A DNA stretch of 64,000 nt from Cladocopium goreaui (taxonomy: Eukaryota; Sar; Dinophyceae; Suessiales; Symbiodiniaceae): NCBI GenBank assembly GCA_947184155.2, contig CAMXCT020001512.1:1-64000 (forward strand), in the 5' to 3' direction. The translations under genes were made by a program, and so were the position numbers. Below are positions 1 to 43,589 of this stretch, piece after piece; the stretch's first letter is position 1; each line of letters opens with the position of its first letter. The notes below the pieces were generated by a model. That model did no database searches. It saw nothing but the letters and a program-made list of their open reading frames with translations, and was not told the DNA's origin.

Positions 1-1
1 T

Positions 2-3000
2 GACTCGAAAGCACCCAAAGCCGATCGCCTCGAGGACCAGGTCATTCCGCAGACACCCAAAGCTGTGCCTCTTGAGTCCAGATTGCATCCGCCACAAGAT
101 GAGTACGAATACGAACCAGGTACGCCTCTACCAGCCGACAGCGATGTCGAGCCTGATGCACCCGAAGCGCCCGTATTTCCAGATCTCAAATTGACCCCTA
201 AAGGTGAAATAATTCCAGATGGACATCATTGGGATGGTCACCGGATTGTACGTAACTACAAAGGTTCAAAGCGTCCGGAGGGGATCGACTCAGAATTGTG
301 GAAGATGTTAGGACCCCAAGATAGGAAGTTGATCATCGAGGAAGAAGCAAAGAAAGCAGCCAAGGAGCAGGAGGAAAAGCCAGCATCTTCGTCTGGCAGC
401 AAGGGCAAAAAGAAGAAGTCTTCGCCGGCCCGGCTTGAGGCAACTCAACGCCCTCCTGCAACTGCAAAGCTCGTAGGCAATGTTTGGGAAATTATTCCAG
501 CCACTTCCCAAAAGTTTTCCGTGCCGGCAATGCCAAAAGTTGCCGCGCCTGCCACAATTGAGCACCGGCCTCGAATTAGAGAGCTCGTCAGAGAGAAGAT
601 CAAGGAACTTGAGTTCAAGGTCGCACTCGAGCTTTTCGCTTCAGTTGCTAGGCTTGTATCAAAAGATGAGATTGCCAGCAACCCCAAGGCCAAAGCCGCC
701 CTTGATAAGGAGTGGGATAATCTCCGTAATAAGGGTGTTTGGGATGAGAAGCGTGTTCGTGAATGCCGCGACATAGTAGCTGAGGCTCGTCGCAATGGCC
801 AAACTGTGCACCTAGGTCGAATCTTTGAGGCTTGCTATGAGAAGGGCTCTGAATTGCCTGAATCAGACCCTCGCCGGAAGTTCAAGGGTAGGACGGTTTT
901 CCAAGGGAACAATGTCAGGGACGAGAATTCTGATCACGCACTCTTCAACGAGTTAGGCTCTTCCCCAGCATCCATGGAAGCAGCAAAGCTGCTAGATGCT
1001 TTTGGTAGTCAGCCCGGGTTTTCCAAACAGCAGGCAGATGCAATCCAAGCCTACATACAAGCCCTCTTCACAGGGGTGCCCACATGGTTGTCACTTCCAC
1101 GCAACAGATGGCCCAAAGATTGGGAGAAAAAGTACTGGCAACCCATGGTTCCTATGTTACTTGCCCTTTATGGTCATCCTGATAGCGGGGGTATTTGGGA
1201 AAATCATCTCAATAGCCGTGTGGTGAAACAGGGTTGGAAGCAAATTTTACCTGACATTTGGCATTCAATTTTTCATCATCAAGAGCTCAACTGTCTTTTG
1301 GTTGTGTATGTAGATGACTTCAAGATGGCTGGCCCCACTGCTAATCTGGAAAAGGCATGGGCAAGCGTCAAGGCTGCAGTGAACATTGGTGATCCTGAGC
1401 CATATGACCGCTACTTTGGCTGTATGCACCGTGAATTCCAAAACATCCGGTTGCCTTCGCAGGCACACCCTTTCGCATTCGCCTTTGAAGCCAAGAAGTC
1501 AGCAGCCGCACAACACAGAACACAAGACTGGTGGGAGCATGATGAAACCAACATGGCATGGATAAGACACCACATTCAACCCCGCAAAAGATTGTACCAG
1601 CCGGTTGATGAGGGGGGAGATGTAACTTGTAAAAATTCGAGTCGCATTACTTTCTTTGACAAAAAGGTCACATTGAAAAGTTGTCCTAGCATCACCGACG
1701 GGAACAATCAGGGGGGCTATGATGTTTATACAGATGATTGGAAAACATCTAGCAATCAAACAAATGAATTCTGGACAGGAAAAACAGTTTTCTGTTACGG
1801 ACAAGATGGACCTGACAAATTCAAGCAGTTTGCAATGGCAAGTAAAGCCAGACCAGGACCACATCGCGACAAACGCGAGGCGAAAAAGGAAGCCAAGGCC
1901 TCTAAGTTCAAGGGGGTTGATCACGCTGTGAAGACAAAAGCTGGCGTCATGGCCAAGCCCGTGAACTTAGTGAGGTATGACATGAGTGATTTCCTGGGGT
2001 CCTGCGTAGAAAACTATTGTAGTCTCGCAAAAGTCAGCCCATCGTCCTTAAAAGAGGTGCCAACACCATTCACAGATGCTGGCATCGCACGGCCCACACT
2101 CAGTGAAGATGAAAAGCCTGGCAAACTCCAGCCAGTGGCCAGCAAGATCTTGATGAAGATACTCTTTGCCGCCAGAATGGCAAGGTTCGATTTGTTGCGT
2201 GCCACACAAAGCTTAGCATCAAGAGTGACAAAATGGTCCATAGAATGCGATGTTGCTTTGCATAGATTGGTGTCATACATTCATTGTACAAAGCACCATT
2301 TCCTAGAGGGTTTCATTGGGGATGCCTTTGATGAATGCCAACTCTGGCTTTTTGCCGACGCAGATCATGCAGGCGAACATGATAGCAAGAGTACCACTGG
2401 CAGTGCCATTGTGCTTGTAGGCCCCAACACATATTACCCCTTAAATGCATTCAGTAAGAAACAAACGGTTGTTGCAATATCTTCAACTGAGGCTGAGGTA
2501 GTTGCCGCAAATCACAGCATGAGAGCTGAGGGCATTCCAATGCTGGCCCTGTTTGAGCAGTTGAACCTTTTCAAGAAGCTACAGGGTAAGCCAGCTCGCG
2601 ATGCCGCGAAGCCCCAAGAAGATGCCGTGTTCACTAGGATCCACCCTGAAATTGATGAAATCCGTAATGGGAACGTCGATACAGGTTGTAGTGCAGCGGA
2701 CATCAACTCCCTCAAGGCCAGTTTCCCTGAATTTTATCAAGTCAAATTTATGGAGGACAACCAGGCGACTATTACAGTCATGTCCACCGGTTCATCAGCA
2801 TCCATGAGACACATGAACAAAACACAAAACATCAACTTCAAATGGTTGAAACAGCAATTTGAATGTAAACAGTTCGATCTTCTCAACGTAGGAACCAGTT
2901 TCCAAGTTGCAGACATTCTTACAAAACCTTTTACCCGACCAGCCCTTTGGTTGCATGCCATTCATCTCATTGGCATTGGCCCGACAAAGGTGAAAGAAGC

Positions 3001-6000
3001 AGCAGCCCGCCACACCGCGGTGCCGAACTCCACTAAGGTGCCAAAACTAGCAACCGCTGCCGGGAATCAGGGGGGCTCCCAAAAGTCTTTTAAGCCCAGA
3101 ATGTTGATCGAATTTTGCTGCTCTAATGATTCGAAGCTTAGTACCCCAAGAAAGTCCAATGAAGATTGCCACTGCATTAGGGTTACCGAAAAAGAAGATG
3201 GTACCACTACCAGCTGTCGGCAACGGCTAGCCTCCCAAGTCCAAGATTTCAGAAATGATTTCAATGATGGCACTTTGATACTTTACGCATCATTGCCTTG
3301 TGTTGGAGGTAGCCCATGGGGGAACGTGAATGGCCTTACTGTTGAGGGTCAAGAAAGAATCAAAGAGCAACAAAAACAGTTTACCAAGTTGTTCAAATAT
3401 TTTGTCAAACTTGTGGATGAAGTTTATGATGAACGAACCTTGATAGCATTTGAACTGTCCAAGAATTGCAAATATTGGAGATGGCCGATGGTTAGAAAAT
3501 TCCTCATAGAACGATCCATGACTACTCATCACTTTGATGGTTGCATGTTGGGTGTTCTTGGAAACAACGGTCAACCAATGAAGAAAAGTTGGACCATTGC
3601 AGGAAACTTCAAAGAACTTGCGGTGTTAGACTCATTCAAATGTGATGGCAAACATGAGCATGATCAAAGTAGGGGCAAAGCTCTTAAACTTGCTGAGAAC
3701 TATACCTTCAAGTTGACTGACATGCTCCATGAGTGTTTCCGGGTAGCTGTGGTGGGCCAAACATCTAAAAGGATTTCACCCGCTGTCATTCGTGCCTGTC
3801 CTGCTAAAATGGCTGACTCGCGATATGCCACAGCACACCCGGCCAGCCGCGAGGCTGCGCTCGAAGCCACACGTGAGGCTAACAAAGAAGCATGGTTGCT
3901 CCTTCACAATCGCATTTTGTTTGCATTGGCCATGCGCAATGAAGGTGAGAATCAGGCTGCTCAGGACCTCGTGGATGGACTGATGACTGAATGGACGCCG
4001 GCTTCGGCCCTGAGGTTCTACGGTCGAGAGGATCCGCTTGCAGAATACCTTAGCTTCTGCTTTTTGCCAAAGGAGTCCCACATTGAAAAGATCATGTTGC
4101 CAGAGATGCCCGTCAATGATGTAATCTGGATCTTAGTCTCTGACTCGTCATGTGCATTGATCACAGGGCGTAGGAAAACACTTAAGAAGTTTGACCTGTC
4201 CGAGCATTACCGGCAGCGCAAGCCTAAGTATGTGACTGAGTTCATCCATGAGATGCTCTGGGGCAAGACTCTGCAAAAGCTGGTCAAGCGTGGGATTGAA
4301 TTGGCCGCGGACGCCCGCGAGCGCTATCCTGATGCACGCATCAACCTGCATTTGTCCTGGTTCGGAAATGAATTGGTAGGAGAGGATGGGATTGCCCAAA
4401 ATCCAAATTGGCCGTACGACGGCCCCAACGGGCACTGGCCCACGATCCTGGATGATTGTGAGCGCCACTTGACATGGTTTGTCAACAAGGCCCGGGAGTT
4501 GGATTTGCAGTCGGCCGGTCTCACGACCGCGCCTTGGAGCGCAGATTACGGCATCCATCCTATCTTTGACCAGTTCTTTGATGTTTTGGAGCCCCGATTT
4601 AAAGCTCTAACCAGCAGCCCGCAAGGGCTTGCCAATCCGAAGTATCCGTGGCTGAAAGCAAAGGGGTACGCCGATGCAATGGAATTCAGAGACCAGTGGC
4701 ATTTCGCCAACTCTGAAGAAAATCGCACGCGTCTTGCTGCCTATTGGACAGCTACCCTTTTCGCAATTGATTGCGGCTGGCGGGTTGGTCGGATTGGTTT
4801 GCAGCTTACTGAGTGTGGCCAGGAAACATGGGATGATTTGCGGAGGAACATGAGCGCCGTCCTGGACGAGCTGCCAAGATCCTATCAGGAGACATGTGCA
4901 AACATCACCAAGTTGCTTTTTGGAGAGTCCCGAAGACACATCACGCCGACGGGCAGGTCATTCACCAAGGAGGACGTCGAAGCTCAACAACCAGACACCG
5001 AGGACTACATCGACACCAAAACGATGCCTTCTGGCACGTTTGCTGAGCCTCCCAAAGATGACCCTCCAAAGGCCGCCGGCGACGGCGAGCCCGCTGCATC
5101 CAGCAGAGCAACAATCCTGGTCCAAACGGCTGAGGTCATGTTGAAGTCGCGGCCGAAAGCAGCACCAGCACCATTGGATGAGCCTGCAGATGACAAGAGA
5201 GCCACATCCAGCCAGTACCAGCCGCAGGCAACTGCGCGCTTAGAGGGACATGCATCCGGCCACGTGAAAGCATATTGGATGGAAGAGCATTTGCCTGAAT
5301 ACCAATATACAATTGTGACCAATGCAGACGGGGACGATGTGCCCGGTATCCTCTTTGAAGGTACGGCGTATGAGCTGGAGCTGATATCGGCATCCGACGT
5401 TGAGACCATTGCTGGCCAGACTCGTGTCGACAAGAAATTTTCTGATTTTGCAACTCGTGTCAACAAAGTTTGCAGGGGGCATGGATCCTGTGCCAAGGTG
5501 CCAATGGACAAAGACCTTTGGATTGACTTGGAGGATTTTGCCAAAGCCTTCCGCAAGGAAGTGCCCCCAGATGTTTTCATCACTGTCTCAAACCTGTTTG
5601 GCACCGCAATGAAGATCGACAAGCATGGCAAGAGTAGGTTCCAATTCTTGTGTGCAAAGATCTCCCATTTTCCTGTCGACAATGGCCTAGGCATGCCGTA
5701 TTATCCTGTAAAAATCCGTGCAATTCAGGGTCATTCCGAAGCTGCCTTGAAAACCGCAGGGGGTCTTTATGCCAATTCAACCATGGTGTATTGCTCAAAC
5801 CAAGTATCCCCCGAGCGAAAAGCCGCCTTCACTGGCGTGCCCTTGTGTGCCATGACTGAGGTCCCTGAGGTTGTCTTCCATCGCACGATGAGAAGCAGCT
5901 GGAAGAGCATCGCACAGAACGGCCTGATCCCAGGCGGCGGTGACACAGTCAACAGTGGCCGTGCTCATATCTACATGGCAGAACACTGTATCGGCCTGTA

Positions 6001-6079
6001 TCGGCACACAGGGGTATCGGTCTGGATTAAGAGCAAAATGTCCAGTCGAAGTCAAAATCGCGATGCGGCAAGCAGTTGA
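2..6079 (+). CDS. Copia pol (RT-RNase H) fused to methyltransferase-like, SGNH-like and Tpt1-like domains, 5' partial
   Basis: No stop precedes the first codons, so the frame enters from outside the window; residues below are counted from the GTG at 65. Residues 1-160 are a proline/lysine-rich linker. Residues 165-500 are a Copia RT, with motif-A aspartate near 325 and YVDD at 415-418. RNase H spans about 760-965: Asp765, the STEAE glutamate, the EDNQ aspartate and the ADILTKPF tail. Residues 1008-1240 look like a C5-methyltransferase Rossmann domain (IEFCCSNDS as motif I, SLPCVGGSPW as motif IV, FELSKN in the motif VI position). Residues 1345-1510 have SGNH-like blocks (VSDSS, WFGNEL, DYGIHP). 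Residues 1785-1990 match Tpt1/KptA, including the family signature IRAIQGHS and FHRTMRSSW. The frame leaves Tpt1 homology near 6011 and stops at 6077-6079. RT and RNase H are secure and Tpt1 nearly so; the methyltransferase and SGNH calls rest on short motifs. Confidence 0.85.
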   Translation, partial: DSKAPKADRLEDQVIPQTPKAVPLESRLHPPQDEYEYEPGTPLPADSDVEPDAPEAPVFPDLKLTPKGEIIPDGHHWDGHRIVRNYKGSKRPEGIDSELWKMLGPQDRKLIIEEEAKKAAKEQEEKPASSSGSKGKKKKSSPARLEATQRPPATAKLVGNVWEIIPATSQKFSVPAMPKVAAPATIEHRPRIRELVREKIKELEFKVALELFASVARLVSKDEIASNPKAKAALDKEWDNLRNKGVWDEKRVRECRDIVAEARRNGQTVHLGRIFEACYEKGSELPESDPRRKFKGRTVFQGNNVRDENSDHALFNELGSSPASMEAAKLLDAFGSQPGFSKQQADAIQAYIQALFTGVPTWLSLPRNRWPKDWEKKYWQPMVPMLLALYGHPDSGGIWENHLNSRVVKQGWKQILPDIWHSIFHHQELNCLLVVYVDDFKMAGPTANLEKAWASVKAAVNIGDPEPYDRYFGCMHREFQNIRLPSQAHPFAFAFEAKKSAAAQHRTQDWWEHDETNMAWIRHHIQPRKRLYQPVDEGGDVTCKNSSRITFFDKKVTLKSCPSITDGNNQGGYDVYTDDWKTSSNQTNEFWTGKTVFCYGQDGPDKFKQFAMASKARPGPHRDKREAKKEAKASKFKGVDHAVKTKAGVMAKPVNLVRYDMSDFLGSCVENYCSLAKVSPSSLKEVPTPFTDAGIARPTLSEDEKPGKLQPVASKILMKILFAARMARFDLLRATQSLASRVTKWSIECDVALHRLVSYIHCTKHHFLEGFIGDAFDECQLWLFADADHAGEHDSKSTTGSAIVLVGPNTYYPLNAFSKKQTVVAISSTEAEVVAANHSMRAEGIPMLALFEQLNLFKKLQGKPARDAAKPQEDAVFTRIHPEIDEIRNGNVDTGCSAADINSLKASFPEFYQVKFMEDNQATITVMSTGSSASMRHMNKTQNINFKWLKQQFECKQFDLLNVGTSFQVADILTKPFTRPALWLHAIHLIGIGPTKVKEAAARHTAVPNSTKVPKLATAAGNQGGSQKSFKPRMLIEFCCSNDSKLSTPRKSNEDCHCIRVTEKEDGTTTSCRQRLASQVQDFRNDFNDGTLILYASLPCVGGSPWGNVNGLTVEGQERIKEQQKQFTKLFKYFVKLVDEVYDERTLIAFELSKNCKYWRWPMVRKFLIERSMTTHHFDGCMLGVLGNNGQPMKKSWTIAGNFKELAVLDSFKCDGKHEHDQSRGKALKLAENYTFKLTDMLHECFRVAVVGQTSKRISPAVIRACPAKMADSRYATAHPASREAALEATREANKEAWLLLHNRILFALAMRNEGENQAAQDLVDGLMTEWTPASALRFYGREDPLAEYLSFCFLPKESHIEKIMLPEMPVNDVIWILVSDSSCALITGRRKTLKKFDLSEHYRQRKPKYVTEFIHEMLWGKTLQKLVKRGIELAADARERYPDARINLHLSWFGNELVGEDGIAQNPNWPYDGPNGHWPTILDDCERHLTWFVNKARELDLQSAGLTTAPWSADYGIHPIFDQFFDVLEPRFKALTSSPQGLANPKYPWLKAKGYADAMEFRDQWHFANSEENRTRLAAYWTATLFAIDCGWRVGRIGLQLTECGQETWDDLRRNMSAVLDELPRSYQETCANITKLLFGESRRHITPTGRSFTKEDVEAQQPDTEDYIDTKTMPSGTFAEPPKDDPPKAAGDGEPAASSRATILVQTAEVMLKSRPKAAPAPLDEPADDKRATSSQYQPQATARLEGHASGHVKAYWMEEHLPEYQYTIVTNADGDDVPGILFEGTAYELELISASDVETIAGQTRVDKKFSDFATRVNKVCRGHGSCAKVPMDKDLWIDLEDFAKAFRKEVPPDVFITVSNLFGTAMKIDKHGKSRFQFLCAKISHFPVDNGLGMPYYPVKIRAIQGHSEAALKTAGGLYANSTMVYCSNQVSPERKAAFTGVPLCAMTEVPEVVFHRTMRSSWKSIAQNGLIPGGGDTVNSGRAHIYMAEHCIGLYRHTGVSVWIKSKMSSRSQNRDAASS

Positions 6080-7667
6080 AGCTGGTGTCATCTTTAGTCG
6101 CACAGAAATGGATGGTATTTTGTGTTCAGAACGCATTCCACCGCAGTTTCTGGTCAGCATCTCAGAAGAAGGACAGGTGCTTTGGACCCGCGCCGAGAGC
6201 AATCTCGAGCCCAGTTCATGGACAGGCGCGGAATCAGCCTCAGCACCGAAATCCAAAGCGGTCACCCTGACTGCCCGAGATGATGCAAATGACGACCCAA
6301 TGGATGACACCAGCACGGGGCGACCCGATGCCAAGTCCACTGATGATGATGCAGCCACTGCCTCAATGCAAGTTGACCAGCCGCCCGCAAGGACGCGCCG
6401 TGTTTACATTGCACCTAAGTACTGCGAACCTTTCATGGGCTCCTGTCCCCTCTGCCAGGTTGAGTACGTCAGTGGCCAAGTGACATGCACCACATGTGGG
6501 TTTGAGCCACTCCCAGTGGACGAAAGTGGCGATACAAAAGATGCCAACAAACCCAACAGGAGGACCCGTATCCTTGAACGGCGAATGCAAAGTCTCGCCG
6601 GGTTCGGAATGTTTGGGAAGATGAGCGGAAGCTTGCTGACAGCCTTGACGGAAGAGCAAGCCAACCTGCTACGCCGAGAACTGGGCCCCAGGGGAATCAC
6701 ATCCGTGGAATCAGCAGTCCTCAAAGACTGCCGCGACAGGCATCGACGTGCAAAAGCGCTGGGCTACGAGGACGTGGAAGACAGATACTCCAGCGACGTC
6801 ACTTTTTGCGACCGCATCCACGGTGAGGGGAAGGACCTGCAGGACTGCATATTTGACGACATGTTCGCATATGGCAACCTCCCCGATCCCCCAAGGACCA
6901 AAGCTCAGATCTCGGCTGGCGTCGCCGCCAATGCCCAAAATGAAAACTGCTTATCTAAGTTGATTTTCATGTCCCAGCCTCGAGGTGTTGATGGTTTCCC
7001 AGTTGAGTTCCGCAAAACATGGAAGAAGGTCTGGGGTTTCATGTTCGGCCGCCACATTTTTACAGAGGATGAATATGTCAGCTACATCGGCCGTCGTGGC
7101 GCATTCCGTGGCCTGTTGACCTGGAAGGGCACTGTCCAAGTTCCTTTTGATGGCACTCTTGATTTCCTCGAAAAGGTGTATGAGGAAAACCTTCCATTGG
7201 TTCGGGGCAACCTTGAACGCAAAGAGAAGCAGAGCGCCGCTGCAAAGGCTGGAGGTCCTGGAGGTCATAAGGCCGACCCCACGGTCGCGCCCACCACTGA
7301 GCGAAAACGCAAAGCCGAAGCTGATGCATCCGTCACCACACATGATACTGCCGCCTCAAGCTCTGCTCGCGCAGATGCCTTGCACGCTGATGCCCCAGTT
7401 GACCCCAACAATGCACCATTTCTTGCACCCGAACCACCAACACCCAAAGCAGGAGCGCGACCATTCTTGGAGCCTGAGACACCGCCCACTGCAAAAGCAG
7501 CAAGCAAAGGAGTCACATCAAAGGCTGCAAGCTCCGGTCGCCCGGATGCCTCCTGGAGTTGGAATCGTGATCACTATGGTGCACGCCGAGAATGGAGTTT
7601 CTGGCGTGGGGCTTGGTATTACCGTGACGAGGCCGGCGGCCGGTGGATCTATTGGAACCGCAGGTAG
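6015..7667 (+). CDS. Continuation ORF: Tpt1 C-terminal part, zinc ribbon, unknown domain
   Basis: This frame (open from about 5940, one base on from the upstream pol frame) resumes Tpt1 homology at GLRAKCPVEVKIAM and continues through VIFSRTEMDGIL and IPPQFL, which match the end of Tpt1 domains. The join therefore needs a +1 shift near the GGGG run at 6011-6014. After an acidic linker comes a likely zinc ribbon (CPLC, then CTTC, about 6444-6505). A charged region of about 240 residues follows that I do not recognise, then a proline/alanine-rich stretch and a tryptophan/arginine-rich C terminus (about 7555-7667). Either the two frames are joined by programmed frameshifting or a one-base change split one original protein. 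No independent start codon with clear support is visible at the junction. Confidence 0.7.
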   Translation, partial: YRSGLRAKCPVEVKIAMRQAVEAGVIFSRTEMDGILCSERIPPQFLVSISEEGQVLWTRAESNLEPSSWTGAESASAPKSKAVTLTARDDANDDPMDDTSTGRPDAKSTDDDAATASMQVDQPPARTRRVYIAPKYCEPFMGSCPLCQVEYVSGQVTCTTCGFEPLPVDESGDTKDANKPNRRTRILERRMQSLAGFGMFGKMSGSLLTALTEEQANLLRRELGPRGITSVESAVLKDCRDRHRRAKALGYEDVEDRYSSDVTFCDRIHGEGKDLQDCIFDDMFAYGNLPDPPRTKAQISAGVAANAQNENCLSKLIFMSQPRGVDGFPVEFRKTWKKVWGFMFGRHIFTEDEYVSYIGRRGAFRGLLTWKGTVQVPFDGTLDFLEKVYEENLPLVRGNLERKEKQSAAAKAGGPGGHKADPTVAPTTERKRKAEADASVTTHDTAASSSARADALHADAPVDPNNAPFLAPEPPTPKAGARPFLEPETPPTAKAASKGVTSKAASSGRPDASWSWNRDHYGARREWSFWRGAWYYRDEAGGRWIYWNRR

Positions 7668-8290
7668 ACGATGATTTTCTTTTGTAGCATAGCGCAAGAT
7701 GCGGCATGGTAATGTGCCTTCCTTGCAAAGCTGCGCTGGGTTTTACGGGCTTGAGCTTTTTATAGGGACCTTTGAAAGACTGCATAAAAATGATAAAAAC
7801 CAACTAAAGAAATTTGGCTACCCGCGAGGGTATGCTCTTCTGGGTTATTCGTTCTCCGCAGTCGTCCCTGCTCGCCCGAGGGGGGTGTAAAAACTCCTGC
7901 AGTAAAACCATGTAGTATATATATATCATCGATCTACTCTGTAGCGTTGGTTCAAAAGAGCTGAGTGCTTACCGGTTTGTTGCGCCCCCATATAGTCATT
8001 GTACTATATTGTTGGCTGACCTGGTAAAATACAGGTTCACCCCATGAAATCGCATGGAAACCTTGGCTAAGCCATCTTGAAAAATCCCCTGAAATTCCAT
8101 GAAGAAACCTTGGTTAAATCATCCTTTTCAGTACCATTATATGATAAAGGTCAATCCTATGGTATCTGGAAACCAATGCATCTTTAAGGTGATACCCTAT
8201 ATTTTCAGTGGTTCTTTTATATGATATACATTCCATAAAACCATCCTTTCCCGTGGAAAATCTCCGGAAAAAACCCATTGTGTCACCCTA
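7668..8290. other. Non-coding: 3' flank of element A and AT-rich DNA
   Basis: About 240 bases after the stop resemble a 3' untranslated or LTR region (GC-rich to about 7890). A short TA run follows at 7917-7930, then AT-rich DNA with degenerate repeats of a CCATGAAA/CCTTGG type. No LTR boundary could be fixed and no gene is visible. Confidence 0.5.
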
Positions 8291-8293
8291 GGC

Positions 8294-8386
8294 ACGTTTA
8301 CGGTGACACAGCCAGAGCCGGTTTTGGTGAAGGGCTCAGGAGGCTACCTGGTAGCGTGGCACCTTGGTCGCCGAAGTCCAATTTAA
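8294..8386 (+). CDS. Candidate host exon (weak)
   Basis: A GC-richer island follows an acceptor-like CCCTAG and reads as about 30 residues (beginning TFTVTQPEPVLVKGSG) before a stop. Possible donors CTG|GTAGCG and TTG|GTCGCC lie inside it. Composition differs sharply from the surrounding AT-rich DNA. No family is recognised, and no partner exon can be joined with confidence. Confidence 0.25.
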   Translation, partial: TFTVTQPEPVLVKGSGGYLVAWHLGRRSPI

Positions 8387-8421
8387 CGAAACGACACGGG
8401 GAGCTCTTGGTGAATGGGATA

Positions 8422-8655
8422 CCCTCCGGTAAACGTTTACAGTTATGGAAATCACCAAGATTAATAGGTACATCAACTACTGATTGGTGGTGACTGGAAC
8501 ATGACTGGATGACATGACTTTCCCATCATATTGGGAATAATAATCCTATCTGACGAACTCATATTTTTCAATATTTTTCAGAGGGGTAGGTATACCACCA
8601 ACCAGACTATAAATGGGCCATTTACGATAGCAAACTGTTAGAGAAAACCGGAGGG
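8422..8655. mobile_element. F1 inverted-repeat element interrupted by an F2 element
   Basis: The ends CCCTCCGGTAAAC and AACCGGAGGG are flanked by TA on both sides (8420-8421, 8656-8657). Removing the F2 insert at 8480-8605 and one copy of its ACTA duplication leaves about 104 bp that align with other F1 copies across the junction (AATAGGTA ... CATCAACTATAAATGGGCC). Confidence 0.75.
8480..8605. mobile_element. F2 inverted-repeat element nested in F1
   Basis: It starts CTGATTGGTGG and ends CCACCAACCAG. The 4-bp direct repeat ACTA flanks it (8476-8479, 8606-8609). It contains the family core TGACGAACTCATATTTTTC followed by AGAGGGGTAGG. Confidence 0.75.
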
Positions 8656-9901
8656 TACAAGATCAATGGCCATTTTAGATATCTGAACTGGAGGTACCTA
8701 CCATGCTTACCAACAGCCAATGTAAGGGCTATGTAAGGAGGGATATACCCCAATTTCGATTGCTGTATGGTACAGCACATCCGGTCCTGAAATTCCAATT
8801 GAAAAGATGGGATTAACCATGGCTAAAATGGTTGTTTAATAGGATAAATAATGGTGATTTGTGATGGATTTAGTGGTGTTTACTTGGAGTTAAATCACTA
8901 AATCCATTAAATCACCATTAATGGTAAGGGGATTACCACCCTAAAGCCTCTGGAAAATCATGGCCGTGGCTGGAAAATCACTTCCACGAACATCCAGTGG
9001 TTTTTTCGACGATTCAACGGTGATTTATGACTTTAGATCAGGCGCTTAAAAAACTGATGATTTTTTGAAAACCATGCTGCCATGGTGCCATGTCCTTGGT
9101 CAGTTGGGGGTAGAAGTATAGGATTAGCCAGCTATAAAATGGCCCAGTCGATTTATAGTGGATGACTACCCAGCTATAAGCTATGGTGGATCTTTACCAG
9201 AGGGCTCCCAGATATGGACCACTTGTTTGCATAGCTGGAGCTGCGACCCCACTTGCCACATGATTTCCAGATTCCAAGCGGTTGGATTTTATTTTAGGCG
9301 GGGTGCCCACTAACGATGTGGAAAAGGTGTTGGGGGAATCCTGGGGAAACCGGAAAATGATCTACAAATAGTAGGCTAACATCCATATCGATGTTTGTTT
9401 CCAGAAGGGTCACTGGTCACTGGTCGAAGGACTAGTACACACTTACCAACCAGCTTTTAAGTTCTAGGGATTCTAGGTCACCTTGGAAATGAATCCTGAC
9501 ACTCTACGCGGGAGTAGCGCCCGCCGGAAAATACGGGGGAGGGATAAAGCACGAAGATGGTACAGAGTAAAACTGGGCAATACTTACTTGTGCTTAGTAG
9601 GGAATGAGGGAATGATCCATAATCACTAGTAATAATCATCCCATTCCCCCATTCCCATCCATTCTCTACTAAGCACCACTAAGAATATTATCTGGTAGTT
9701 GAACATAGCTATGGAAAATCACGGTGATTTTTATGGAAAATCATCGCGCTAAATTGGTCATTTTCCACATTTTCCACCCTGTGTTTGAACTACCACAGGG
9801 CATCCCAACATAAAAACACCCCTCAAAATGGATGTGGATCTCTTACCGAATTCGCCACGGTTGGCTGATCAAATCTGGGTCATCCCCTCAATTATGGTAT
9901 T
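8656..9901. other. Non-coding AT-rich DNA with fold-back repeats
   Basis: No gene is visible. A hairpin-forming tract at about 8850-8930 alternates GTGATTTA-type and TAAATCAC-type words. A decayed F1-like right half (TTTACCAGAGGG) lies at about 9120-9208. A fold-back occurs at 9591-9677, listed separately. Confidence 0.4.
9591..9677. repeat. Fold-back repeat, about 87 bp
   Basis: GTGCTTAGTAGGGAATG near 9592 is mirrored by CATTCTCTACTAAGCAC near 9660-9676, with further internal complementarity (GAATGAT / ATCATCCCATTC). It forms an almost complete hairpin and may be a small inverted-repeat element of another family. Confidence 0.5.
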
Positions 9902-11572: not shown

Positions 11573-12234
11573 TGAGTGACCGCGTCCTGGCCTTGGAATC
11601 TGAGGTTAGGAAATTGAGGCGGGAGCTGCGAGACTTAAGCAGGGATTTTGATTGGGTGTGCAGGCATTTGCGCATTGTGCTCCCGCAGGACGAAACTGTA
11701 AGTGGCTCACCACGTGATTTGTCAGTTCATCTGTCTGGTGGTGAATCTGAGGGGAGCTTCTCAGTGGTGAGCAGTCGAGCTCGTGGGTATTCTGCTCCAC
11801 ACCGAGGTTCAGATTTAGTTCCTGAGGGGACTGTGGCTAGGACTTCACCGACATCATCGGCTTCTGGCAGGTCTCCTACTCTTGGTGTATCAGCTGCAAC
11901 TGGGCCGACAGCGGCACTCTCTTGGGCTGAGCGTGAGGAAATTGCTGAGGGGATCGGACGGTTTTTCACTCGCTGCCTGCAGGGCCAGCACCGTGGTTCA
12001 AGTGGGCGAGATCGGAATCCACTGCCATCTCGTCTCTGGCTTGTGGCTCGGGACTTTGAGGGGCAGGTTTACACCCCCGTCCGAGTTTTCCGGTCCTGGG
12101 GCTCTTGCAAAAACATCTGCAAGCGCTTTGAGGACACAGGTGATTCAGTGTTTGTTGGAGTTCCCTCGGAACGTGAAGCCCGGACCGTGGTGCGTGCAGC
12201 TGGCCTCATTTGGCCAGGTGTGCTGGAGCGATGA
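11572..12234 (+). CDS. Element B ORF2, coiled-coil protein
   Basis: The ATG at 11572 is chosen because it overlaps the ORF1 stop (TGATG). The 220-residue product starts with a charged heptad-like helix (MSDRVLALESEVRKLRREL), followed by a Ser/Thr/Gly-rich linker. A folded C-terminal region of about 100 residues contains RDFEGQVYTPVRVFRSWGSC and ends GLIWPGVLER. No family is recognised; a structural or RNA-binding role would be inference only. The stop overlaps the next start as ATGA (12231-12234). Confidence 0.6.
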   Translation: MSDRVLALESEVRKLRRELRDLSRDFDWVCRHLRIVLPQDETVSGSPRDLSVHLSGGESEGSFSVVSSRARGYSAPHRGSDLVPEGTVARTSPTSSASGRSPTLGVSAATGPTAALSWAEREEIAEGIGRFFTRCLQGQHRGSSGRDRNPLPSRLWLVARDFEGQVYTPVRVFRSWGSCKNICKRFEDTGDSVFVGVPSEREARTVVRAAGLIWPGVLER

Positions 12235-12965
12235 GCGCCGAAGCCGCTGAGGAGCCGTTCGACGAAGCGGCTTCTAGTCCCTATCTGTTTGTGGATGGGG
12301 AGGTGAATTCAAACTTTGAACTTCAGATTTTCACTGCTGATTTTGCTACCGGCAGCCCAGCATTTCCATTGCTGCTGATAGCTGAGTTTGAGGGAAAGTC
12401 TTTAGTAGCTGTTCCAAGTCAAGCATGGCACCGCAGTTCCAATCGCCGCAGGATGGGCGTACCAGGTGCTCTTTCCAAGCCAACTGCAGTCGAAGTACTT
12501 GCAGCAAAATTAGATACTCCGCAAGTCAGTGCCGAAGGGATCAATTTGAAGACATGGATTGGATACCTTCGAGCAGATCTTTTGACTCATTTGCAGCCGT
12601 ACTCCGAGACGGAGAACTGCGACTTTCATTTTCTGGAGGAGGATGGCGAAGTTTACATCCCCCTAGCGGCTTCATTGATTGCAGCCGCCCAGGATCATTT
12701 TGCCTTTTTCTCAGCTCAAGAGGAAGTCGCTCCGCAGACTCGTGGCGTGCGCGACGACTTGGACGGAGAGCCGCTGGGAGAACCAGGAGAACCTGGATTG
12801 GCAGCCTTGGGCGCAAGAATGACTCAGGTGGAGAGTGTGTTGGATTTTCTTCAAGATGGCATGAGGACCTTGATGGCTCAACAGAGCATGGGACAAAGGA
12901 GGCAGCCTGCGGCTTCACAGGCCTACCGGGAGACCCCGGCAGCTCCAACTGCCCAGCCGAAATGA
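12231..12965 (+). CDS. Element B ORF3, unknown acidic protein
   Basis: The ATG at 12231 overlaps the ORF2 stop by four bases. The 244-residue product has an N-terminal beta-rich-looking region (SPYLFVDGEVNSNFELQIFT), an acidic middle, and a C-terminal helical stretch (ALGARMTQVESVLDFLQDGM) that could oligomerise. No known domain is recognised. It ends six bases before the next ATG. Gag-like or nucleocapsid function is possible from position only; no zinc knuckle is present. Confidence 0.6.
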   Translation: MSAEAAEEPFDEAASSPYLFVDGEVNSNFELQIFTADFATGSPAFPLLLIAEFEGKSLVAVPSQAWHRSSNRRRMGVPGALSKPTAVEVLAAKLDTPQVSAEGINLKTWIGYLRADLLTHLQPYSETENCDFHFLEEDGEVYIPLAASLIAAAQDHFAFFSAQEEVAPQTRGVRDDLDGEPLGEPGEPGLAALGARMTQVESVLDFLQDGMRTLMAQQSMGQRRQPAASQAYRETPAAPTAQPK

Positions 12966-12971
12966 GGCTCT

Positions 12972-14018
12972 ATGTCTTCGTCAAAGAACCCAAACCCTCA
13001 AGCAGCTGGACTGTTTCCGCACCTGGACAAAGGTGTAGTGCAGGCAGCCCTGCAGGCGGATGTGCCAATGTCGAGTCTCAAGCAGATGGAGGATGTTGTT
13101 TCCCAGAATGTCAAGGCCAAGAAGGTGAACGATGTCAAGACCGGGGTGACTCTAGATCCTCTGTCAGAGCACGAGGACGCGCTCGAAGTTGCAGCACGAG
13201 AGGCAGAAGATGCTGGGTATCAGGAAGAAGGCCTTCCTGTTGGCCGTACTTTGGACAAGCTCACTGCGATCATGGAGATGTTGACAGAGGAGCGATGCAA
13301 GAAGGCCTCAACCTCGAAGTTGGATGCGGCACTGGACAATGTTCAGGGCTCGGGATCAGATGCTACGTCTTTAGGCTCTGGCAAGAAAAGTGCCGCGGCG
13401 AGAAGAGCGCTGAGAACGGCTTTTCAAGATCATCCCAAGGAGATATACAAGATGGTGGAGCGCCTCATGTACGAGGATCTGAACGCTCAGACTTTGCCTC
13501 CAGGTCAGCTACCGAGAGGCCTATCAGCAAGAGCTTGGGTCGAGTTTCGCAGTCGGATCACTGCCTACAAGGCCTCAGCTTACAGTGCCTGGTCGCTCAG
13601 TGGTGTCTTGGACAGCCTGATTGCAGGCAACATCTCTCAAGCGCGAGCTCGAGCTTGCTTGGGGCTGCTTCAGATCGACCAAGCATGCATCGATCGTGGC
13701 AACTATGTATTGGCAGCCGAGTTGAGCCTCGAGATTGGGCCTCCGCTGAATGCCCTCAGCCAGCATGTAGCGCCCGACATTCAGCAGGGCGAAGCACCGT
13801 TTTCCAGACTGCTGGACAGCCGATGGGCCGAGATAGCACTGGGGCACCTCAGGGACCAGGAGGACTATTTGAGTCGCCGACGAAATATCGGCAAGGGTCA
13901 GAATGCAAAGTCGGAGAGCACCGACGAGATTGCCACGCACTCCCCAAAGAGAAGGCCAAAACCGGCTGCAAAGCCGAAGGCTTCCCAGCAGAGCTCCGAC
14001 AAGGGCCAAGATGCATGA
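12972..14018 (+). CDS. Element B ORF4, gag-like protein
   Basis: A 348-residue hydrophilic protein. The first half is acidic with helical stretches, the centre is Ala/Arg-rich (around SAAARRALRTAF), and the C-terminal tail is strongly basic and lysine/proline-rich (HSPKRRPKPAAKPKASQQ), suitable for nucleic-acid binding. It directly precedes the enzyme ORF, the usual place of Gag in this order. The start at 12972 lies six bases after the ORF3 stop, and its stop overlaps the ORF5 start as ATGA (14015-14018). No CCHC knuckle was seen. Confidence 0.6.
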   Translation: MSSSKNPNPQAAGLFPHLDKGVVQAALQADVPMSSLKQMEDVVSQNVKAKKVNDVKTGVTLDPLSEHEDALEVAAREAEDAGYQEEGLPVGRTLDKLTAIMEMLTEERCKKASTSKLDAALDNVQGSGSDATSLGSGKKSAAARRALRTAFQDHPKEIYKMVERLMYEDLNAQTLPPGQLPRGLSARAWVEFRSRITAYKASAYSAWSLSGVLDSLIAGNISQARARACLGLLQIDQACIDRGNYVLAAELSLEIGPPLNALSQHVAPDIQQGEAPFSRLLDSRWAEIALGHLRDQEDYLSRRRNIGKGQNAKSESTDEIATHSPKRRPKPAAKPKASQQSSDKGQDA

Positions 14019-17000
14019 ACACCGACAATGTCGATGCTAGTCCTGATAGTGCTGGCTCGCCTGCGGGGTCTCCTAAATCTTTACCTGGCACGCGTGCCGC
14101 CACTGTCAATGTTGAGGGCTTTTTGAATTCATTGCCGAGGATGCTGCTACAGACAAACTGCGGCCTCCAAAGTTTTTTGCTCACCATCGTGAATAGACCC
14201 CATGGCAGCTCGCCTGTTACGTCAAAGCCTGGATGTACATGGCCATGTCCATTGCCCTATCCTGAAGTCTTTGGCAAAGATGTTGCTTCGAAAGTGTCAA
14301 ATGCACACCTCAAGCGGCTCGTCAACCTTCAGGTGTTGACACTTGACTGGTTCCATTTGGGATGCCCGGAAGTGGCTCCTTCTTTTCTCTTTTTGGGATC
14401 AAAGCTCAGTGCAAAGCAGTGGTCGGCCATTAGAATGATGGAGTTCCTGGCTTTTGATCGGAATTCACCTAAATTCGTAACTGCCGCCGAGATGGGTCGT
14501 TCAGCGACAAAAGTTGAAGATTTGCAAGAATGCATGGATGTTCTTGGCAGAGCAGTTGTTTCTTTGCATGATTTTGATGGCAGCTACAGCCCTTTGAAGC
14601 CATCAAGATGTGGTATTTTTGATGAGACGTTGTCATCTGGTCAGGTTGTTGGAAGAGTCGACAAGGACCCGGTTATGACTGCCAAGCCGCTTGAGGCTAC
14701 GCGTTTGAATTTTCCTGGGCCACCTTCTTTCAACCCACGCCCCTACATGGATGCTGAAACTATTGAGCGATATGATTCTCCACTACAGACTGGTCATGAG
14801 CTTGGTGAAATTTCAGAGGATCCACCTCGTGTTTCAGTTAGAGCAACAAAGGAAAACAAACTGCTCCTGTACCGCAAGTTGGCTGAATCTGGACGACTCA
14901 AACCAGTGAAGAAATCAACCGTCCTTGTGAATTTTTCATCTGGTTTGTTTGCTGTTGGAAAGGATCATTTACGAGACCGGCTGGTACTGGATGGGCGGCC
15001 AGCGAACCTGGCCGACAAGGCCCAGAAGAAATGGGCCAGGGCTATGGCTTCAGCGTCAACTCTTTCCCAACTTCATTTGCCTGCTGAATTTGATTTGTGT
15101 ATTTCTGGGGAGGACCTTAGAGATTTCTTTTATCAATTTCAAGTTGGAGATGAACGTGTGCGAAGGAATGTGCTGTGTGACCCTGTCGATCTATGTGATG
15201 CTCCAGCTGTATTTGGTGACGGTTTTTCTTGGGATGAAGATCCTGTCTATGTGGGTTTATCCACGTTGGCCATGGGTGATGTCAATGCAGTTGAATTTGC
15301 GCAGAGCAGTCATCTAGGACTTTGTTTGCAGCACGGTGTTGCATTGCCACATGAACTATTGACATTAACTGGTTCTGTTCCCCGTGGTTTGTTGCAAGTT
15401 GGAATCATTGTAGATGACCTCATTGTACTTGAACAAGTTCTCAAGTCAATTAGAAGCCATGACCCTCCTTTGCCTACGCAAGCTGATGATCGAATCAACA
15501 AAGCCTTGAGCGCATATGCCAGCGTTGGCTTGGAGCATAATCCGAAGAAGGAGTTCAAAAATGAAACCTGCGCTCGCTTCTGGGGGCTTGAAGTTGACGG
15601 CGAAAAAGGTTTGCTGCGGGCTTCAACACTCCGTTTGTGGCCTTTGTGTTTGATCACTATGAGGGTAGTCAGACTGGGTCTAGCAACAGTGAGCCTTCTG
15701 GAATCACTTGCTGGCAGTTGGGTTTCCATTTATGGGGTCAGACGGAAACTTTTTTGCATTCTCAACCTCATTTTTGAACCATTGGGAATACCCGATCAGA
15801 AAAAAGTGCTGCGACTTTCTCCTGAGCTGATCTCAGAACTGTGTTGCCTGGTCATTATGGGAACCCTTTGTGTAGTTAACCTACGAGCTGGCTTCTTCGA
15901 TCATGTGGTGGCGACAGATGCATCTGAAAAATGGATGGCGGGGGTGTCTGCTCCCTGCCCATGTAATGTGGTGCAGGAACTGGCAAGGTTTTCTCTGCGC
16001 AAAGCTGTATGGACAAAGTTGCTGTCACCATTGCAGGCTAGAGACAGGGTTGCTGGCATTTTGGACCCGGCTGATGAATTACCTGATGAACATTATGATA
16101 CTCATCCTTTGTGGGTTCTGATGGCAAGAGCTTTAAGGTACAAAGAAAGCTGGCGTGAGCAAGTTCGCAGATATACTCACATTAATGTGTTGGAGCTGCG
16201 AGCTCACCTGCGTCATGAGCGCAGACTGGCTGCATCTCGAAAATCTTTGCGCGTGCTATATGGCCTTGACTCGCAGGTTTCATTAGGGTGCCTCATCAAG
16301 GGCAGAAGTTCGTCATGCAGCTTGAACAATGAGATGCAAAAGAACATGTGTCATGCAGTTGCCAGCGATTTATATGACATGTACATGTACTTTCCCAGCG
16401 CTGATAATCCAGCTGATGGACCCTCTAGAGAATCTGATGTTCCTCTTCCTTCAGAACCTTTGCCTTTTTGGTGGCATAGCTTAGCTGAAGGACAAGCAGC
16501 CTTGTTTGATGAGTGGATGACTTCTTTGAATTTGGATACCTTTCTTGGTGGCGTTGATTTTTCCGAATTGTACAGTTGCGAAGATGTTGATTTGACGACG
16601 GGCGCTTTCGAGAAGAGAGTGAATTTTTTGAAGAGATGCAGACATCCTTTGTCTGCAAAGAAATCGCATAAAAATGCACTGCACGAGAATACCATGAACA
16701 TGCTGCACCCAGAGCTTGCTCATAGGGAAGTTTCCATTGATCAGAATTGCACGATCCATGCTGAGGCATGTGAGATTTTGTTGTCCTTTCGTGATGATCA
16801 GTTTTTCTTCTCTGGTGATATCAAAGTGATTACTCAACCTGGGGCTCTTGATCTTTTTTCTGGCAAATGTGGTGTAGCAAGGGCTATGGTAAAAGCAGGA
16901 GCGCCGTGGGTGCTTACATTTGATTGGGAGCGTTCTGCAAGTGAGGATTTGCTTGATTGTGAAGTTCGAATGAAACTCCTTCGCCTTATTCAGCTCGGCG

Positions 17001-41831: not shown

Positions 41832-43589
41832 ATGTCCGGTGCACAATATGGCTACGTGGATCCATCTATTGACAAAGCTGCAGCAGATGAAACTGATGAG
41901 GTGGAGCTTGAGGTTGTGTGCTTGACCGGAGAAGGACTGAAATTGAGCGTCAATCGCTCCATGCTTGGGTCTGACCTGCGCAGGTTGGTGTCAGAGAAGC
42001 TTCCATGGAAGCCAGGCGCAAAGCTCGTCGTGCATCATGTGAATGGAAGTCTGACGCTGGATCAAAACTTGCGAGAGCAAGGGATTGTTGGAAAATCTGC
42101 AACGGTGTCCTGCACTTACATACCAACTAATGTGTATACAGCCTGGCGTTATGCCTGTGATCTCCCAAATTGTGAGCGAGAGTTTGCGCTGGAAGGTGTT
42201 ACACATCTTGAAGGAGCACCTCATGGAGAATATCATCTCCTTAGGAGCCTTAGAAGCATCACTTTTGACCACAATTTCAATCAAAGCCTGGAGCGGGTGA
42301 CCTTGCCATCAAGTCTTCAAAGCTTGAGTTTTGGCGACAGTTTCGACCAAAGCCTGGATCGGGTGACCTTGCCATCAAGTCTTCAAAGCTTGAGTTTTGG
42401 CCACTGTTTCAACCAAAGCCTGGATCGGGTGACCTTGCCATCAAGTCTTCAAAGCTTGAGTTTTGGCGACTGTTTCCATCGAAGCCTGGAGCGGGTGACC
42501 TTGCCGTCAAGTCTTCAAAGCTTGAGTTTTGGCCTGAAATTCAACCAAAGCCTGGAGCGGGTGACCTTGCCATCAAGTCTTCAAAGCTTGAGTCTTGGCG
42601 ACTGTTTCAACCAAAGCCTGGAGCGGGTGACCTTGCCGTCAAGTCTTCTAAGCTTGAGTTTTGGCTTCTGTTTCGACCTAAGCCTGGAGCGAGTGACCTT
42701 GCCATCATGTCTTCAAAGTCTTCAAACCTCGAGTTTTGGCGACAGTTTCGACCAAAGCCTGGAGCGGGTGACCTTGCCATCAAGTCTTCAAAGCTTGAGT
42801 TTTGGCGACGGTTTCGACCAAAGCCTGGAGCGAGTGACCTTTCCACTGAGGCTTCAAAGCTTGAGTTTTGGTCGAAAATTCAACCAAAGCCTGGAGCGGG
42901 TGACCTTGCCATCAAGTCTTCAAAGCTTGAGTTTTGGCGACTGTTTCAACCAAAGCCTGGAGCGGGTGACCTTGCCATCAAGTCTTCAAAGCTTGAGTTT
43001 TGGTTTCTGTTTCAGCCAAAGCCTGGAGCGGGTGACCTTGCCATCAAGTCTTCAAAGCTTGAGTTTTGGCGACTGTTTCAACCAAAGCCTGGAGCGGGTG
43101 ACCTTGCCATCAAGTCTTCAAAGCTTGAGTTTTGGCGACTGTTTCCAGCGAAGCCTGGAGCGGGTGACCTTATCATCGAGGCTTCAAAGCTTGAGTTTTG
43201 GGTCTGGTTTTGACCAAAGCCTGGAGCGGGTGACCTTGCCGTCAAGTCTTCAAAGCTTGAGTTTTGGCCAGGAGTTCAACCAAAGCCTGGAGCGGGTGAC
43301 CTTGCCATCAAGTCTTCAAAGCTTGAGTTTTGGCCACTGTTTCAACCAAAGCCTGGAGCGGGTGACCTTGCCATCAAGTCTTCAAAGCTTGAGTTTTGGC
43401 CAGGAGTTCAACCAAAGCCTGGAGCGAGTGACCTTTCCACTGAGGCTTCAAAGCTTGAGTTTTGGCCGGAAATTCAACCAAAGCCTGGAGCGGGTGACCT
43501 TGCCATCGGGTCTTCAAAGGTTTGGCGCTTTCAATGGTGGTGAGACTTCTTCACGTCTGGTCTATGTGAGTTCCGCAGTTTTTTCTTAG
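41832..43589 (+). CDS. FNIP-repeat protein with ubiquitin-like N-terminal region
   Basis: An intronless 585-residue protein from the ATG at 41832. Residues about 14-95 look like a beta-grasp/ubiquitin-like head (VELEVVCLTGEGLKLSV, then LTLDQNLREQGIVGKSATVS). From about residue 150 there are 19 units around SLERVTLPSSLQSLSFG followed by a variable CFNQ/SFDQ/EFNQ junction. This matches the 22-residue FNIP leucine-rich repeat pattern of amoebae and large DNA viruses, and forms a probable solenoid for protein binding. One unit carries an insertion (QSLQTSSFG). A two-unit block with VTFPLRLQSLSFGRKFNQ occurs twice, which indicates internal duplication. There is no signal peptide or membrane segment, so it is probably cytosolic. 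No partner is known; related genes are, to my knowledge, numerous in dinoflagellates. Confidence 0.8.
   Translation: MSGAQYGYVDPSIDKAAADETDEVELEVVCLTGEGLKLSVNRSMLGSDLRRLVSEKLPWKPGAKLVVHHVNGSLTLDQNLREQGIVGKSATVSCTYIPTNVYTAWRYACDLPNCEREFALEGVTHLEGAPHGEYHLLRSLRSITFDHNFNQSLERVTLPSSLQSLSFGDSFDQSLDRVTLPSSLQSLSFGHCFNQSLDRVTLPSSLQSLSFGDCFHRSLERVTLPSSLQSLSFGLKFNQSLERVTLPSSLQSLSLGDCFNQSLERVTLPSSLLSLSFGFCFDLSLERVTLPSCLQSLQTSSFGDSFDQSLERVTLPSSLQSLSFGDGFDQSLERVTFPLRLQSLSFGRKFNQSLERVTLPSSLQSLSFGDCFNQSLERVTLPSSLQSLSFGFCFSQSLERVTLPSSLQSLSFGDCFNQSLERVTLPSSLQSLSFGDCFQRSLERVTLSSRLQSLSFGSGFDQSLERVTLPSSLQSLSFGQEFNQSLERVTLPSSLQSLSFGHCFNQSLERVTLPSSLQSLSFGQEFNQSLERVTFPLRLQSLSFGRKFNQSLERVTLPSGLQRFGAFNGGETSSRLVYVSSAVFS
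42280..43530 (+). repeat. 66-bp coding tandem array (19 units)
   Basis: Units of 66 bp built on GTGACCTTGCCATCAAGTCT and CTTCAAAGCTTGAGTTTTGG. Because 66 is a multiple of three, other frames are also open over long stretches. Units differ mostly in the variable junction. Confidence 0.93.

What the first reader, a model, noticed from the sequence alone, without database searches (positions are those of the whole stretch)
2..7667. Copia element carrying a chain of RNA/DNA-modifying domains
After RT-RNase H, element A encodes methyltransferase-like, SGNH-hydrolase-like and Tpt1/KptA-like domains and a zinc ribbon. Tpt1 removes a 2'-phosphate from RNA using NAD and is normally a tRNA-splicing or RNA-repair enzyme. 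A retroelement combining chromatin-mark and RNA-end chemistry could silence-proof its DNA and process or disguise its RNA. I know of no described Copia element with this set.
Basis: partly seen in the sequence, partly recalled or inferred. Interest (0 to 1): 0.88.

Follow-up and report, generated by a model that had tools for sequence, protein, structure and literature searches.

The report
Retrotransposon carrying three captured enzyme domains
A very large mobile element of the Copia type, present in many copies in this eukaryotic genome, carries three extra enzyme-like parts behind its copying machinery - a DNA-methylating type, an ester-cutting type and an RNA-end-repair type - and they look preserved by selection, which suggests that mobile elements can bring along their own nucleic-acid chemistry.

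The parts
1..8033 (+). Copia LTR retrotransposon (element A), 5' end cut off by the contig start; one broken copy
   Evidence: window = C1512:1-64000; 27 of 39 long matches elsewhere end at 8033-8037
2..6079 (+). ORF 1: stretch ahead of RT, RT, RNase H, MTase-like, SGNH, first part of Tpt1-like domain
875..1420 (+). Copia reverse transcriptase core (RVT_2; YVDD at residue 436)
2072..3001 (+). RNase H region (STEAE at residue 828; bounds set by me as query)
3098..3787 (+). C5-cytosine-methyltransferase-like domain (PC motif; FELS in place of ENV)
4112..4771 (+). SGNH hydrolase domain (DS, GNE, DxxH blocks)
5432..6182 (+). Tpt1/KptA-like domain, both lobes; frame 2 to about 5995, frame 3 from about 6000 (10 extra bases in this copy)
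5928..7667 (+). ORF 2: end of Tpt1-like domain, linker, zinc ribbon, conserved region, aromatic C-terminal tail
   Evidence: unbroken in P0003/P0004 across the break
6444..6497 (+). zinc ribbon motif CPLC-x10-CTTC
7878..7885 (+). polypurine tract GAGGGGGG
   Evidence: same tract right before the 3' LTR in four of five other copies (in C6089 the LTR bounds are blurred)
7886..8033 (+). 3' LTR, 148 bp, TGTA...TACA
   Evidence: 97% identical 148-bp copy in L029 next to a primer-binding site

Best explanation
Shown (I put this part at about 0.97): an autonomous-looking Ty1/copia-type LTR retrotransposon of about 12.6 kb whose single polyprotein of about 4,020-4,040 aa reads gag with two CCCH fingers - protease - integrase - RT - RNase H - C5-MTase-like - SGNH hydrolase - Tpt1-like - zinc ribbon - tail, recently active, with the added domains kept by purifying selection. 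Inferred: fused to the end of Pol, the added enzymes enter the virus-like particle with the RT. The primer is a cleaved tRNA: the primer-binding site is complementary to what looks like an anticodon arm ending at about position 40, as in Drosophila copia. Cleaved tRNA ends can carry 2',3'-cyclic or 2' phosphates; the Tpt1-like domain removes or ADP-ribosylates such a phosphate with NAD so that the end can prime. The MTase-like domain marks the new cDNA, as proposed for the dinoflagellate LINE and DIRS elements with DNMTs. The SGNH domain deacylates a still unknown partner, as proposed for LINE esterases.
For: Single-frame architecture in relatives: 5 of 13 and 8 of 12 hits carry the precomputed Tpt1 Pfam domain. 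14 of 150 scored Tpt1 matches of the own genome lie in frames of at least 4,000 aa. Copy on C5598: LTRs 170 bp identical, TSD ATATC, tract GAGGGGGG, one 4,026-aa frame; four of five copies with 99.3-100% LTR identity and a 5-bp TSD. Folds of all three domains in one model; profile match to human tRNA 2'-phosphotransferase 7yw3 (E 3.2e-4). Catalytic residues conserved. dN/dS within subfamilies: MTase 0.07-0.14 (4 pairs), Tpt1 0-0.11 (11), SGNH 0-0.31 (4). Primer-binding site GGTTATCAGCCGTAGTCTC directly after the 5' LTR, identical in 7 of 7 copies whose 5' end I held; it does not begin with TGG as a site for a tRNA 3' CCA end would. Drosophila copia uses a half-tRNA (PMC5371799, passage) and fungal FunCo1 Copia elements have a site matching an internal part of a tRNA-Lys (PMC5445492, passage). 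KptA handles 2'-phosphates left after metal-independent RNA cleavage and sits in a few viral polyproteins (PMC9503650, passages).
Against: The tRNA that would match the primer-binding site was not found: every genome search for it did not complete. Tpt1 tetrad His is Gly in 12 of 12 rows, and in human TRPT1 mutation of any tetrad residue abolished RNA ADP-ribosylation (PMC6582358, passage), although the equivalent His mutation slowed step 2 of a bacterial Tpt1 only threefold (PMC6333775, passage). No CpG depletion in the element. The MTase-like domain is shorter than DNMT3A's and motifs VIII/IX were not tested. Accessory domains diverge faster between the two subfamilies compared (MTase 60%, SGNH 35%, Tpt1 34% against RT 77% identity). 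8 of 13 hits of the first protein search lack the Tpt1 Pfam label: most stop or break before or inside it, and P0015 matches over 16% of the query only. Earlier, weaker searches: A1 profile found no Tpt1 structure, P0011 alone found 7yw3 at E 0.15. No transcript or protein data. No RT or RNase H dN/dS baseline (script stopped before it).
Confidence: 0.35

Rival explanations
1. Same element, but the Tpt1-like domain acts as an ADP-ribosyltransferase that caps or masks RNA or DNA 5' ends (disguise or protection), rather than cleaning a primer.
For: Human and bacterial Tpt1/KptA ADP-ribosylate 5'-phosphorylated RNA ends, human TRPT1 also DNA (PMC6582358, passages); NAD-lobe residues are kept (H 11 of 12, T 11 of 12, GxR 11 of 11 aligned rows) while the His that contacts the junction 3'-phosphate (PMC6333775, passage) is lost.
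Against: In human TRPT1 the whole tetrad was needed for this activity too. No macrodomain or NUDIX family among the 24 Pfam families listed for 12 members, several of them incomplete.
Confidence: 0.2
2. Same element, but the Tpt1-like domain repairs element RNA or tRNAs damaged by host RNases, or counters a host RNA-based defence.
For: This is the role proposed for KptA in phages and considered for the few RNA-virus polyproteins that hold it (PMC9503650, passages). Tpt1 domains recur in other retroelement contexts of the same genome.
Against: No RNA ligase or 2H phosphoesterase among the 24 Pfam families listed for 12 members, several of them incomplete, so the rest of a repair pathway would have to come from the host.
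Confidence: 0.2
3. The added domains are passengers or structural modules without catalysis (binding, spacing).
For: Tpt1 tetrad His replaced in 12 of 12 rows; fast divergence between subfamilies; the CpG ratio gives no sign of self-methylation.
Against: Catalytic residues tested for MTase and SGNH are invariant in the rows that cover them; dN/dS under 0.15 in 17 of 19 within-subfamily comparisons.
Confidence: 0.2
4. Chimera: RT-RNase H of an element next to an unrelated host gene, or an assembly error.
For: Only the break at 5995-6000 in this copy.
Against: Many copies, 14 single frames over 4,000 aa, LTRs and TSDs outside the whole chain.
Confidence: 0.01

Closest known systems
SymbioDIRS-Dnmt3 and SymbioLINE-Dnmt retrotransposons (de Mendoza et al. 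2018, PMC5890265; abstract and two results sections read)
   Same: Retroelement carrying a C5-cytosine methyltransferase domain in or beside Pol; many copies; purifying selection
   Different: Those are DIRS and LINE elements; that paper states that the abundant Symbiodinium Copia elements lack any DNMT domain, and its text holds no Tpt1, KptA, phosphotransferase, esterase or SGNH. Here the domain is in Copia, not seen by Pfam, and followed by SGNH and Tpt1-like domains
Bdelloid rotifer LTR retrotransposons with GDSL/SGNH ORF3 (PMC5408684, passages) and LINE ORF1 esterases (PMC3905857, search listing and start of abstract only)
   Same: Retrotransposon-encoded SGNH hydrolase with conserved catalytic residues
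   Different: There a separate ORF3 or an ORF1 domain; here inside one Copia polyprotein between MTase-like and Tpt1-like domains
KptA/Tpt1 domains in viral polyproteins (Beihai picorna-like virus, Botrylloides leachii nidovirus) and jumbo phages (PMC9503650, passages)
   Same: Tpt1-type domain in a mobile element, in the two RNA viruses inside a polyprotein
   Different: None of those is a retroelement; the paper's text has 0 occurrences of 'retrotranspos' and 'retroelement'
Drosophila copia half-tRNA priming (PMC5371799, one passage; exact tRNA positions recalled)
   Same: Copia element whose primer-binding site does not match a tRNA 3' CCA end and fits an anticodon-arm sequence
   Different: Drosophila copia has no Tpt1 domain (recalled); the tRNA here is not identified

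Membership tests
Ty1/copia LTR retrotransposon | integrase upstream of RT-RNase H in one Pol | tested here: met
   profile match to Ty1 integrase 7z0h ahead of RT (E 4.7e-4, 0.009); motif order in P0006, P0009, P0013, P0017-P0019; in relatives, as the window lacks that part
Ty1/copia LTR retrotransposon | RVT_2-type reverse transcriptase | tested here: met
   precomputed PF07727 in P0014 and P0015; 8 of 12 members match RVT_2 at E up to 5, best 6.9e-6; in the window, P0009 and P0011 below the curated cut-off
Ty1/copia LTR retrotransposon | LTRs TG...CA, 5-bp TSD, PBS, polypurine tract | tested here: met
   4 of 5 copies; fifth copy C6089 has 87% LTR identity and no TSD; window itself holds only the 3' LTR
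C5-cytosine DNA methyltransferase | fold | tested here: met
C5-cytosine DNA methyltransferase | catalytic PC Cys (motif IV) and Glu (motif VI); motif names recalled | tested here: met
   17 of 17 rows each
C5-cytosine DNA methyltransferase | motif VIII/IX and target-recognition domain | not tested
   domain is shorter than DNMT3A's; not examined
SGNH/GDSL hydrolase | Ser, Gly, Asn, Asp-x-x-His blocks | tested here: met
   S 17 of 17, G and N 16 of 16, D and H 14 of 14 rows
SGNH/GDSL hydrolase | fold | tested here: met
Tpt1/KptA RNA 2'-phosphotransferase | Pfam PF01885 above curated cut-off | tested here: met
   P0005 40.7 and P0011 45.9 bits vs 26; window copy 22 bits, below it; all 150 scored genome matches over cut-off, of all element types
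Tpt1/KptA RNA 2'-phosphotransferase | two-lobed fold | tested here: met
Tpt1/KptA RNA 2'-phosphotransferase | Arg-His-Arg-Arg catalytic tetrad | tested here: not met
   aligned rows: first Arg 13 of 13, His replaced by Gly 12 of 12, third Arg 12 of 12, fourth R 9, K 2 and E 1 of 12 (the E is a stray row, P0013, that lacks the domain). Hence filed as Tpt1-like domain, not as a proven 2'-phosphotransferase
half-tRNA-primed Copia element | PBS complementary to an internal tRNA segment | tested here: inconclusive
   19-nt PBS conserved in 7 of 7 copies with a 5' end; reverse complement fits an anticodon arm (own reading); tRNA gene search did not complete

The most novel reading that the evidence does not exclude
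Retrotransposons of several unrelated types in this genome have repeatedly taken up a Tpt1/KptA domain, in at least two types downstream of a DNA-methyltransferase-like stretch, because their replication depends on RNA-end chemistry: in the Copia family the Tpt1-like domain, with a changed active site lacking the His that contacts the 3'-phosphate, has become a dedicated processor of the cleaved-tRNA primer end. That would be, to my knowledge, the first element-encoded enzyme that makes its own reverse-transcription primer usable.
Probability: 0.2. Interest if true: 0.92.

Novelty: new variant of a known kind. Interest (0 to 1): 0.8.

Why it matters
It adds Tpt1/KptA to the list of enzymes that retroelements have captured and puts a cryptic DNMT-like domain into Copia, the group that a 2018 study of Symbiodinium said lacks one. 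How Copia elements obtain a usable 3' end on a half-tRNA primer is, as far as I recall, an open question; an element that carries an RNA 2'-phosphate enzyme next to a half-tRNA-type primer site makes it directly testable with one purified domain and one cDNA end-mapping experiment. Recurrence in another retroelement type of the same genome suggests a general need rather than an accident.

Tried and rejected
Chimera with a host gene or assembly join: rejected. Self-methylation signature as CpG depletion: not seen; element 0.72, other measured window stretches 0.57-0.64, two other copies 0.64 and 0.66. Spliced-leader motif in the window to prove a dinoflagellate host: 0 matches, so the host stays a guess. 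Relation of the second Tpt1 element type to the window's DIRS-like element: best local match E 5.5 in the part of the list shown. Independent origins of the Tpt1 domains: the tree groups the Copia domains (100/99) and the second type (100/99) apart, but 6 of 13 forks are open and two rows (L041, L042) are long branches, so separate capture is likely, not proven. L041 and L042, fetched for the dN/dS test, did not match the window family at E 1e-6 and fell out of it. C520 has a frame change inside SGNH (two pieces), so its SGNH ratios (0.18, 0.31) may be inflated. The first structure job left the Tpt1 part below pLDDT 50. Foldseek 'pdb' library: never accepted. tRNAs in the window: none by ARAGORN. 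PMC5014426 was opened for half-tRNA priming and did not help (passages); PMC11453091 passages name Copia only for heat-activated copies.
Full report
What is in the window. ORF 2..6079 and the overlapping, frame-shifted ORF 5928..7667 form the 3' two thirds of a Copia element. The window is bases 1-64000 of contig C1512 of a genome of 1.17 Gb in 6,202 contigs, so the missing 5' part is cut off by the contig. Against Pfam only RT (E 0.001) and Tpt1 (E 1.9e-4) show, both under the curated cut-offs. The frame change near 5995-6000 falls inside the Tpt1 domain; against three of three relatives compared the window has 10 extra bases there. Relatives P0003 and P0004 run through that point in one frame. 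A DNA search with 7500-8700 gave 39 long matches elsewhere: 27 end at query 534-538, that is window 8033-8037, 12 at 459-484, none goes further; one more match is 45 bases long (40 of 3,165 candidates scored). The last 148 bp before 8033 read TGTA...TACA after a GAGGGGGG tract.

Other copies. A protein search with residues 1040-2025 gave 13 hits, one of them (P0006) standing for 1,297 member sequences (only the 8,000 best candidates were scored); 5 of the 13 carry the Tpt1 Pfam label, the others mostly stop or break before or inside that domain, and P0015 matches over 16% only. A second search from P0011 gave 12 hits including itself, 8 with the Tpt1 label. Motif order in the full-length hits P0016-P0019 (3,599-3,973 aa) is gag with two CCCH fingers, protease, RT YVDD, RNase H STEAE, MTase LPCxGGSPW, SGNH, Tpt1, zinc ribbon (not every regular expression fires in every one, but the aligned regions of P0016-P0019 are there). 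In the own genome, 150 of 1,496 first-look candidates for PF01885 were scored and all 150 passed the cut-off, element types mixed; 14 of these lie in open frames of 4,020-4,039 aa and 26 in frames of at least 3,400 aa without a stop. The copy on C5598 has 170-bp LTRs identical to each other, the 5-bp duplication ATATC and one 4,026-aa frame. Of five copies paired for LTRs, four have 99.3-100% identity and a 5-bp duplication; the fifth, C6089, has 87% and none. Such copies are young.

Selection. Nei-Gojobori dN/dS on genomic copies (window, C520, C1335, C2768 in one subfamily; C5598, C6033, C2247 in the other), within subfamilies: MTase 0.07-0.14 (4 pairs), Tpt1 0-0.11 (11 pairs or part-pairs), SGNH 0.08, 0.18 and 0.31 plus one pair with no replacement change; the two high SGNH values involve a copy with a frame change. 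So 17 of 19 comparisons are below 0.15. Between subfamilies dS is saturated or nearly so and identity falls from 77% (RT) and 75% (RNase H) to 60% (MTase), 35% (SGNH) and 34% (Tpt1). The script stopped before an RNase H baseline was made, and copies C5927 and C691 fell out because they belong to other families. All three domains were thus held by purifying selection while copies spread, though the last two tolerate much change.

Priming. Directly after the 5' LTR, seven of seven copies for which I held the 5' end read GGTTATCAGCCGTAGTCTC, in both subfamilies including that of the window copy, whose own 5' end is missing (nine other loci scanned hold 3' ends, flanks or the other element type, two of them fetched on the wrong side). 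It does not start with TGG, the complement of a tRNA 3' CCA. Its reverse complement, GAGACTACGGCTGATAACC, can be read as a five-base stem, the seven-base loop CTGATAA with U33 and anticodon GAU, and the start of the 3' stem; this is my reading, and it ends at about the position where Drosophila copia's half-tRNA is cut (position recalled; half-tRNA use from PMC5371799, passage). A site matching an internal part of a tRNA is also reported for fungal FunCo1 Copia elements (PMC5445492, passage). The tRNA gene itself could not be sought because the genome search did not complete (23 tries, last).

Mechanism. Tpt1 removes a 2'-phosphate from RNA with NAD in two steps; the His that is lost here contacts only the junction 3'-phosphate in the crystal structure and its mutation slowed step 2 threefold, while the arginines matter much more (PMC6333775, passages). 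In human TRPT1 loss of any tetrad residue abolished RNA 5'-end ADP-ribosylation (PMC6582358, passage). A terminal 2'-phosphate on a cleaved tRNA has no 3'-phosphodiester neighbour, so loss of that His would fit a primer-end substrate; this is inference. The viral survey proposes KptA for cleaning ends left by metal-independent RNases and finds it in a few viral polyproteins (PMC9503650, passages). For the MTase the published idea is methylation of the element's own cDNA (PMC5890265, sections 6-7); here the CpG ratio gives no support. For SGNH the published ideas concern particle assembly or membranes (PMC5408684, passages).

Recurrence. Twenty-two of the 150 scored Tpt1 matches score 92-101 bits; the seven of the 22 that I looked at (L004-L008, L022, L027; L021 is L006 extended) belong to another element type. 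Four ORFs of two of them were scanned with Pfam (E up to 0.1), which gave Tpt1 at about 94 bits and nothing else; an RT with MDD, an RNase H and a degenerate MTase-like stretch ahead of Tpt1 are my own reading of the translations. All seven keep the LRH motif. Relatives exist among public proteins (4 hits). L042 shows an RT and, in an overlapping frame, Tpt1; L041 a Copia-type RT fragment and a Tpt1-like ORF on the same strand; the RT readings are by eye. The Copia Tpt1 domains form one group and the second type another (100/99 each), with unresolved deep forks. Three matches of 174-180 bits are stand-alone; L002 and L003 look bacterial (C1 is 7.4 Mb), L001 could be the host enzyme.

Known or new. 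Cytosine methyltransferases in retroelements, SGNH domains in LTR elements and KptA in viral polyproteins are each in print. Searches for a retroelement with Tpt1/KptA found none: 0 papers, 3 papers, judged unrelated from titles and abstract starts, 28 papers of which 10 were listed, none by title, 2 papers, none by title. This covers open-licence PubMed Central only. The text of PMC5890265 holds no Tpt1, KptA, phosphotransferase, esterase or SGNH. A Copia element with all three domains is, as far as I can see, undescribed.

Noticed in passing
window 12177-18559 (+): DIRS-like element: ORFs with RT, an MTase-like stretch (ALDLFSGKCGVARAM...) and a tyrosine-recombinase-like C-terminus, read by eye; Pfam gave no match for ORF 12392-18559.
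   Followed up: no
window 46493-52230 (-): A second Copia element (RVT_2 E 8.5e-9) with an MTase-like stretch (VEVFCPPR...LCPPCTDAGG, by eye) ahead of the integrase region instead of after RNase H.
   Followed up: no
window 61722-63998 (-): A third Copia-like RT-RNase H ORF (by eye) with a C-terminal extension that holds a likely transmembrane segment and coiled coil.
   Followed up: no
L021, L022, L027 (G000 C251, C680, C945): A different retroelement type with a better preserved Tpt1 domain (LRH kept) behind RNase H and a degenerate MTase-like region; 22 scored places in the genome at 92-101 bits, seven looked at.
   Followed up: partly
L042 2-3201 and L041 1-3251: Two further contexts with Tpt1-like ORFs next to reverse transcriptase ORFs, possibly separate captures.
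   Followed up: partly
G000 C1 (7.38 Mb), C5523: Contigs with bacterial-looking Tpt1 genes; the assembly may hold bacterial sequence.
   Followed up: no
window 41832-43589 (+): ORF of near-identical repeats (LERVTLPSSLQSLSFG), leucine-rich-repeat-like.
   Followed up: no
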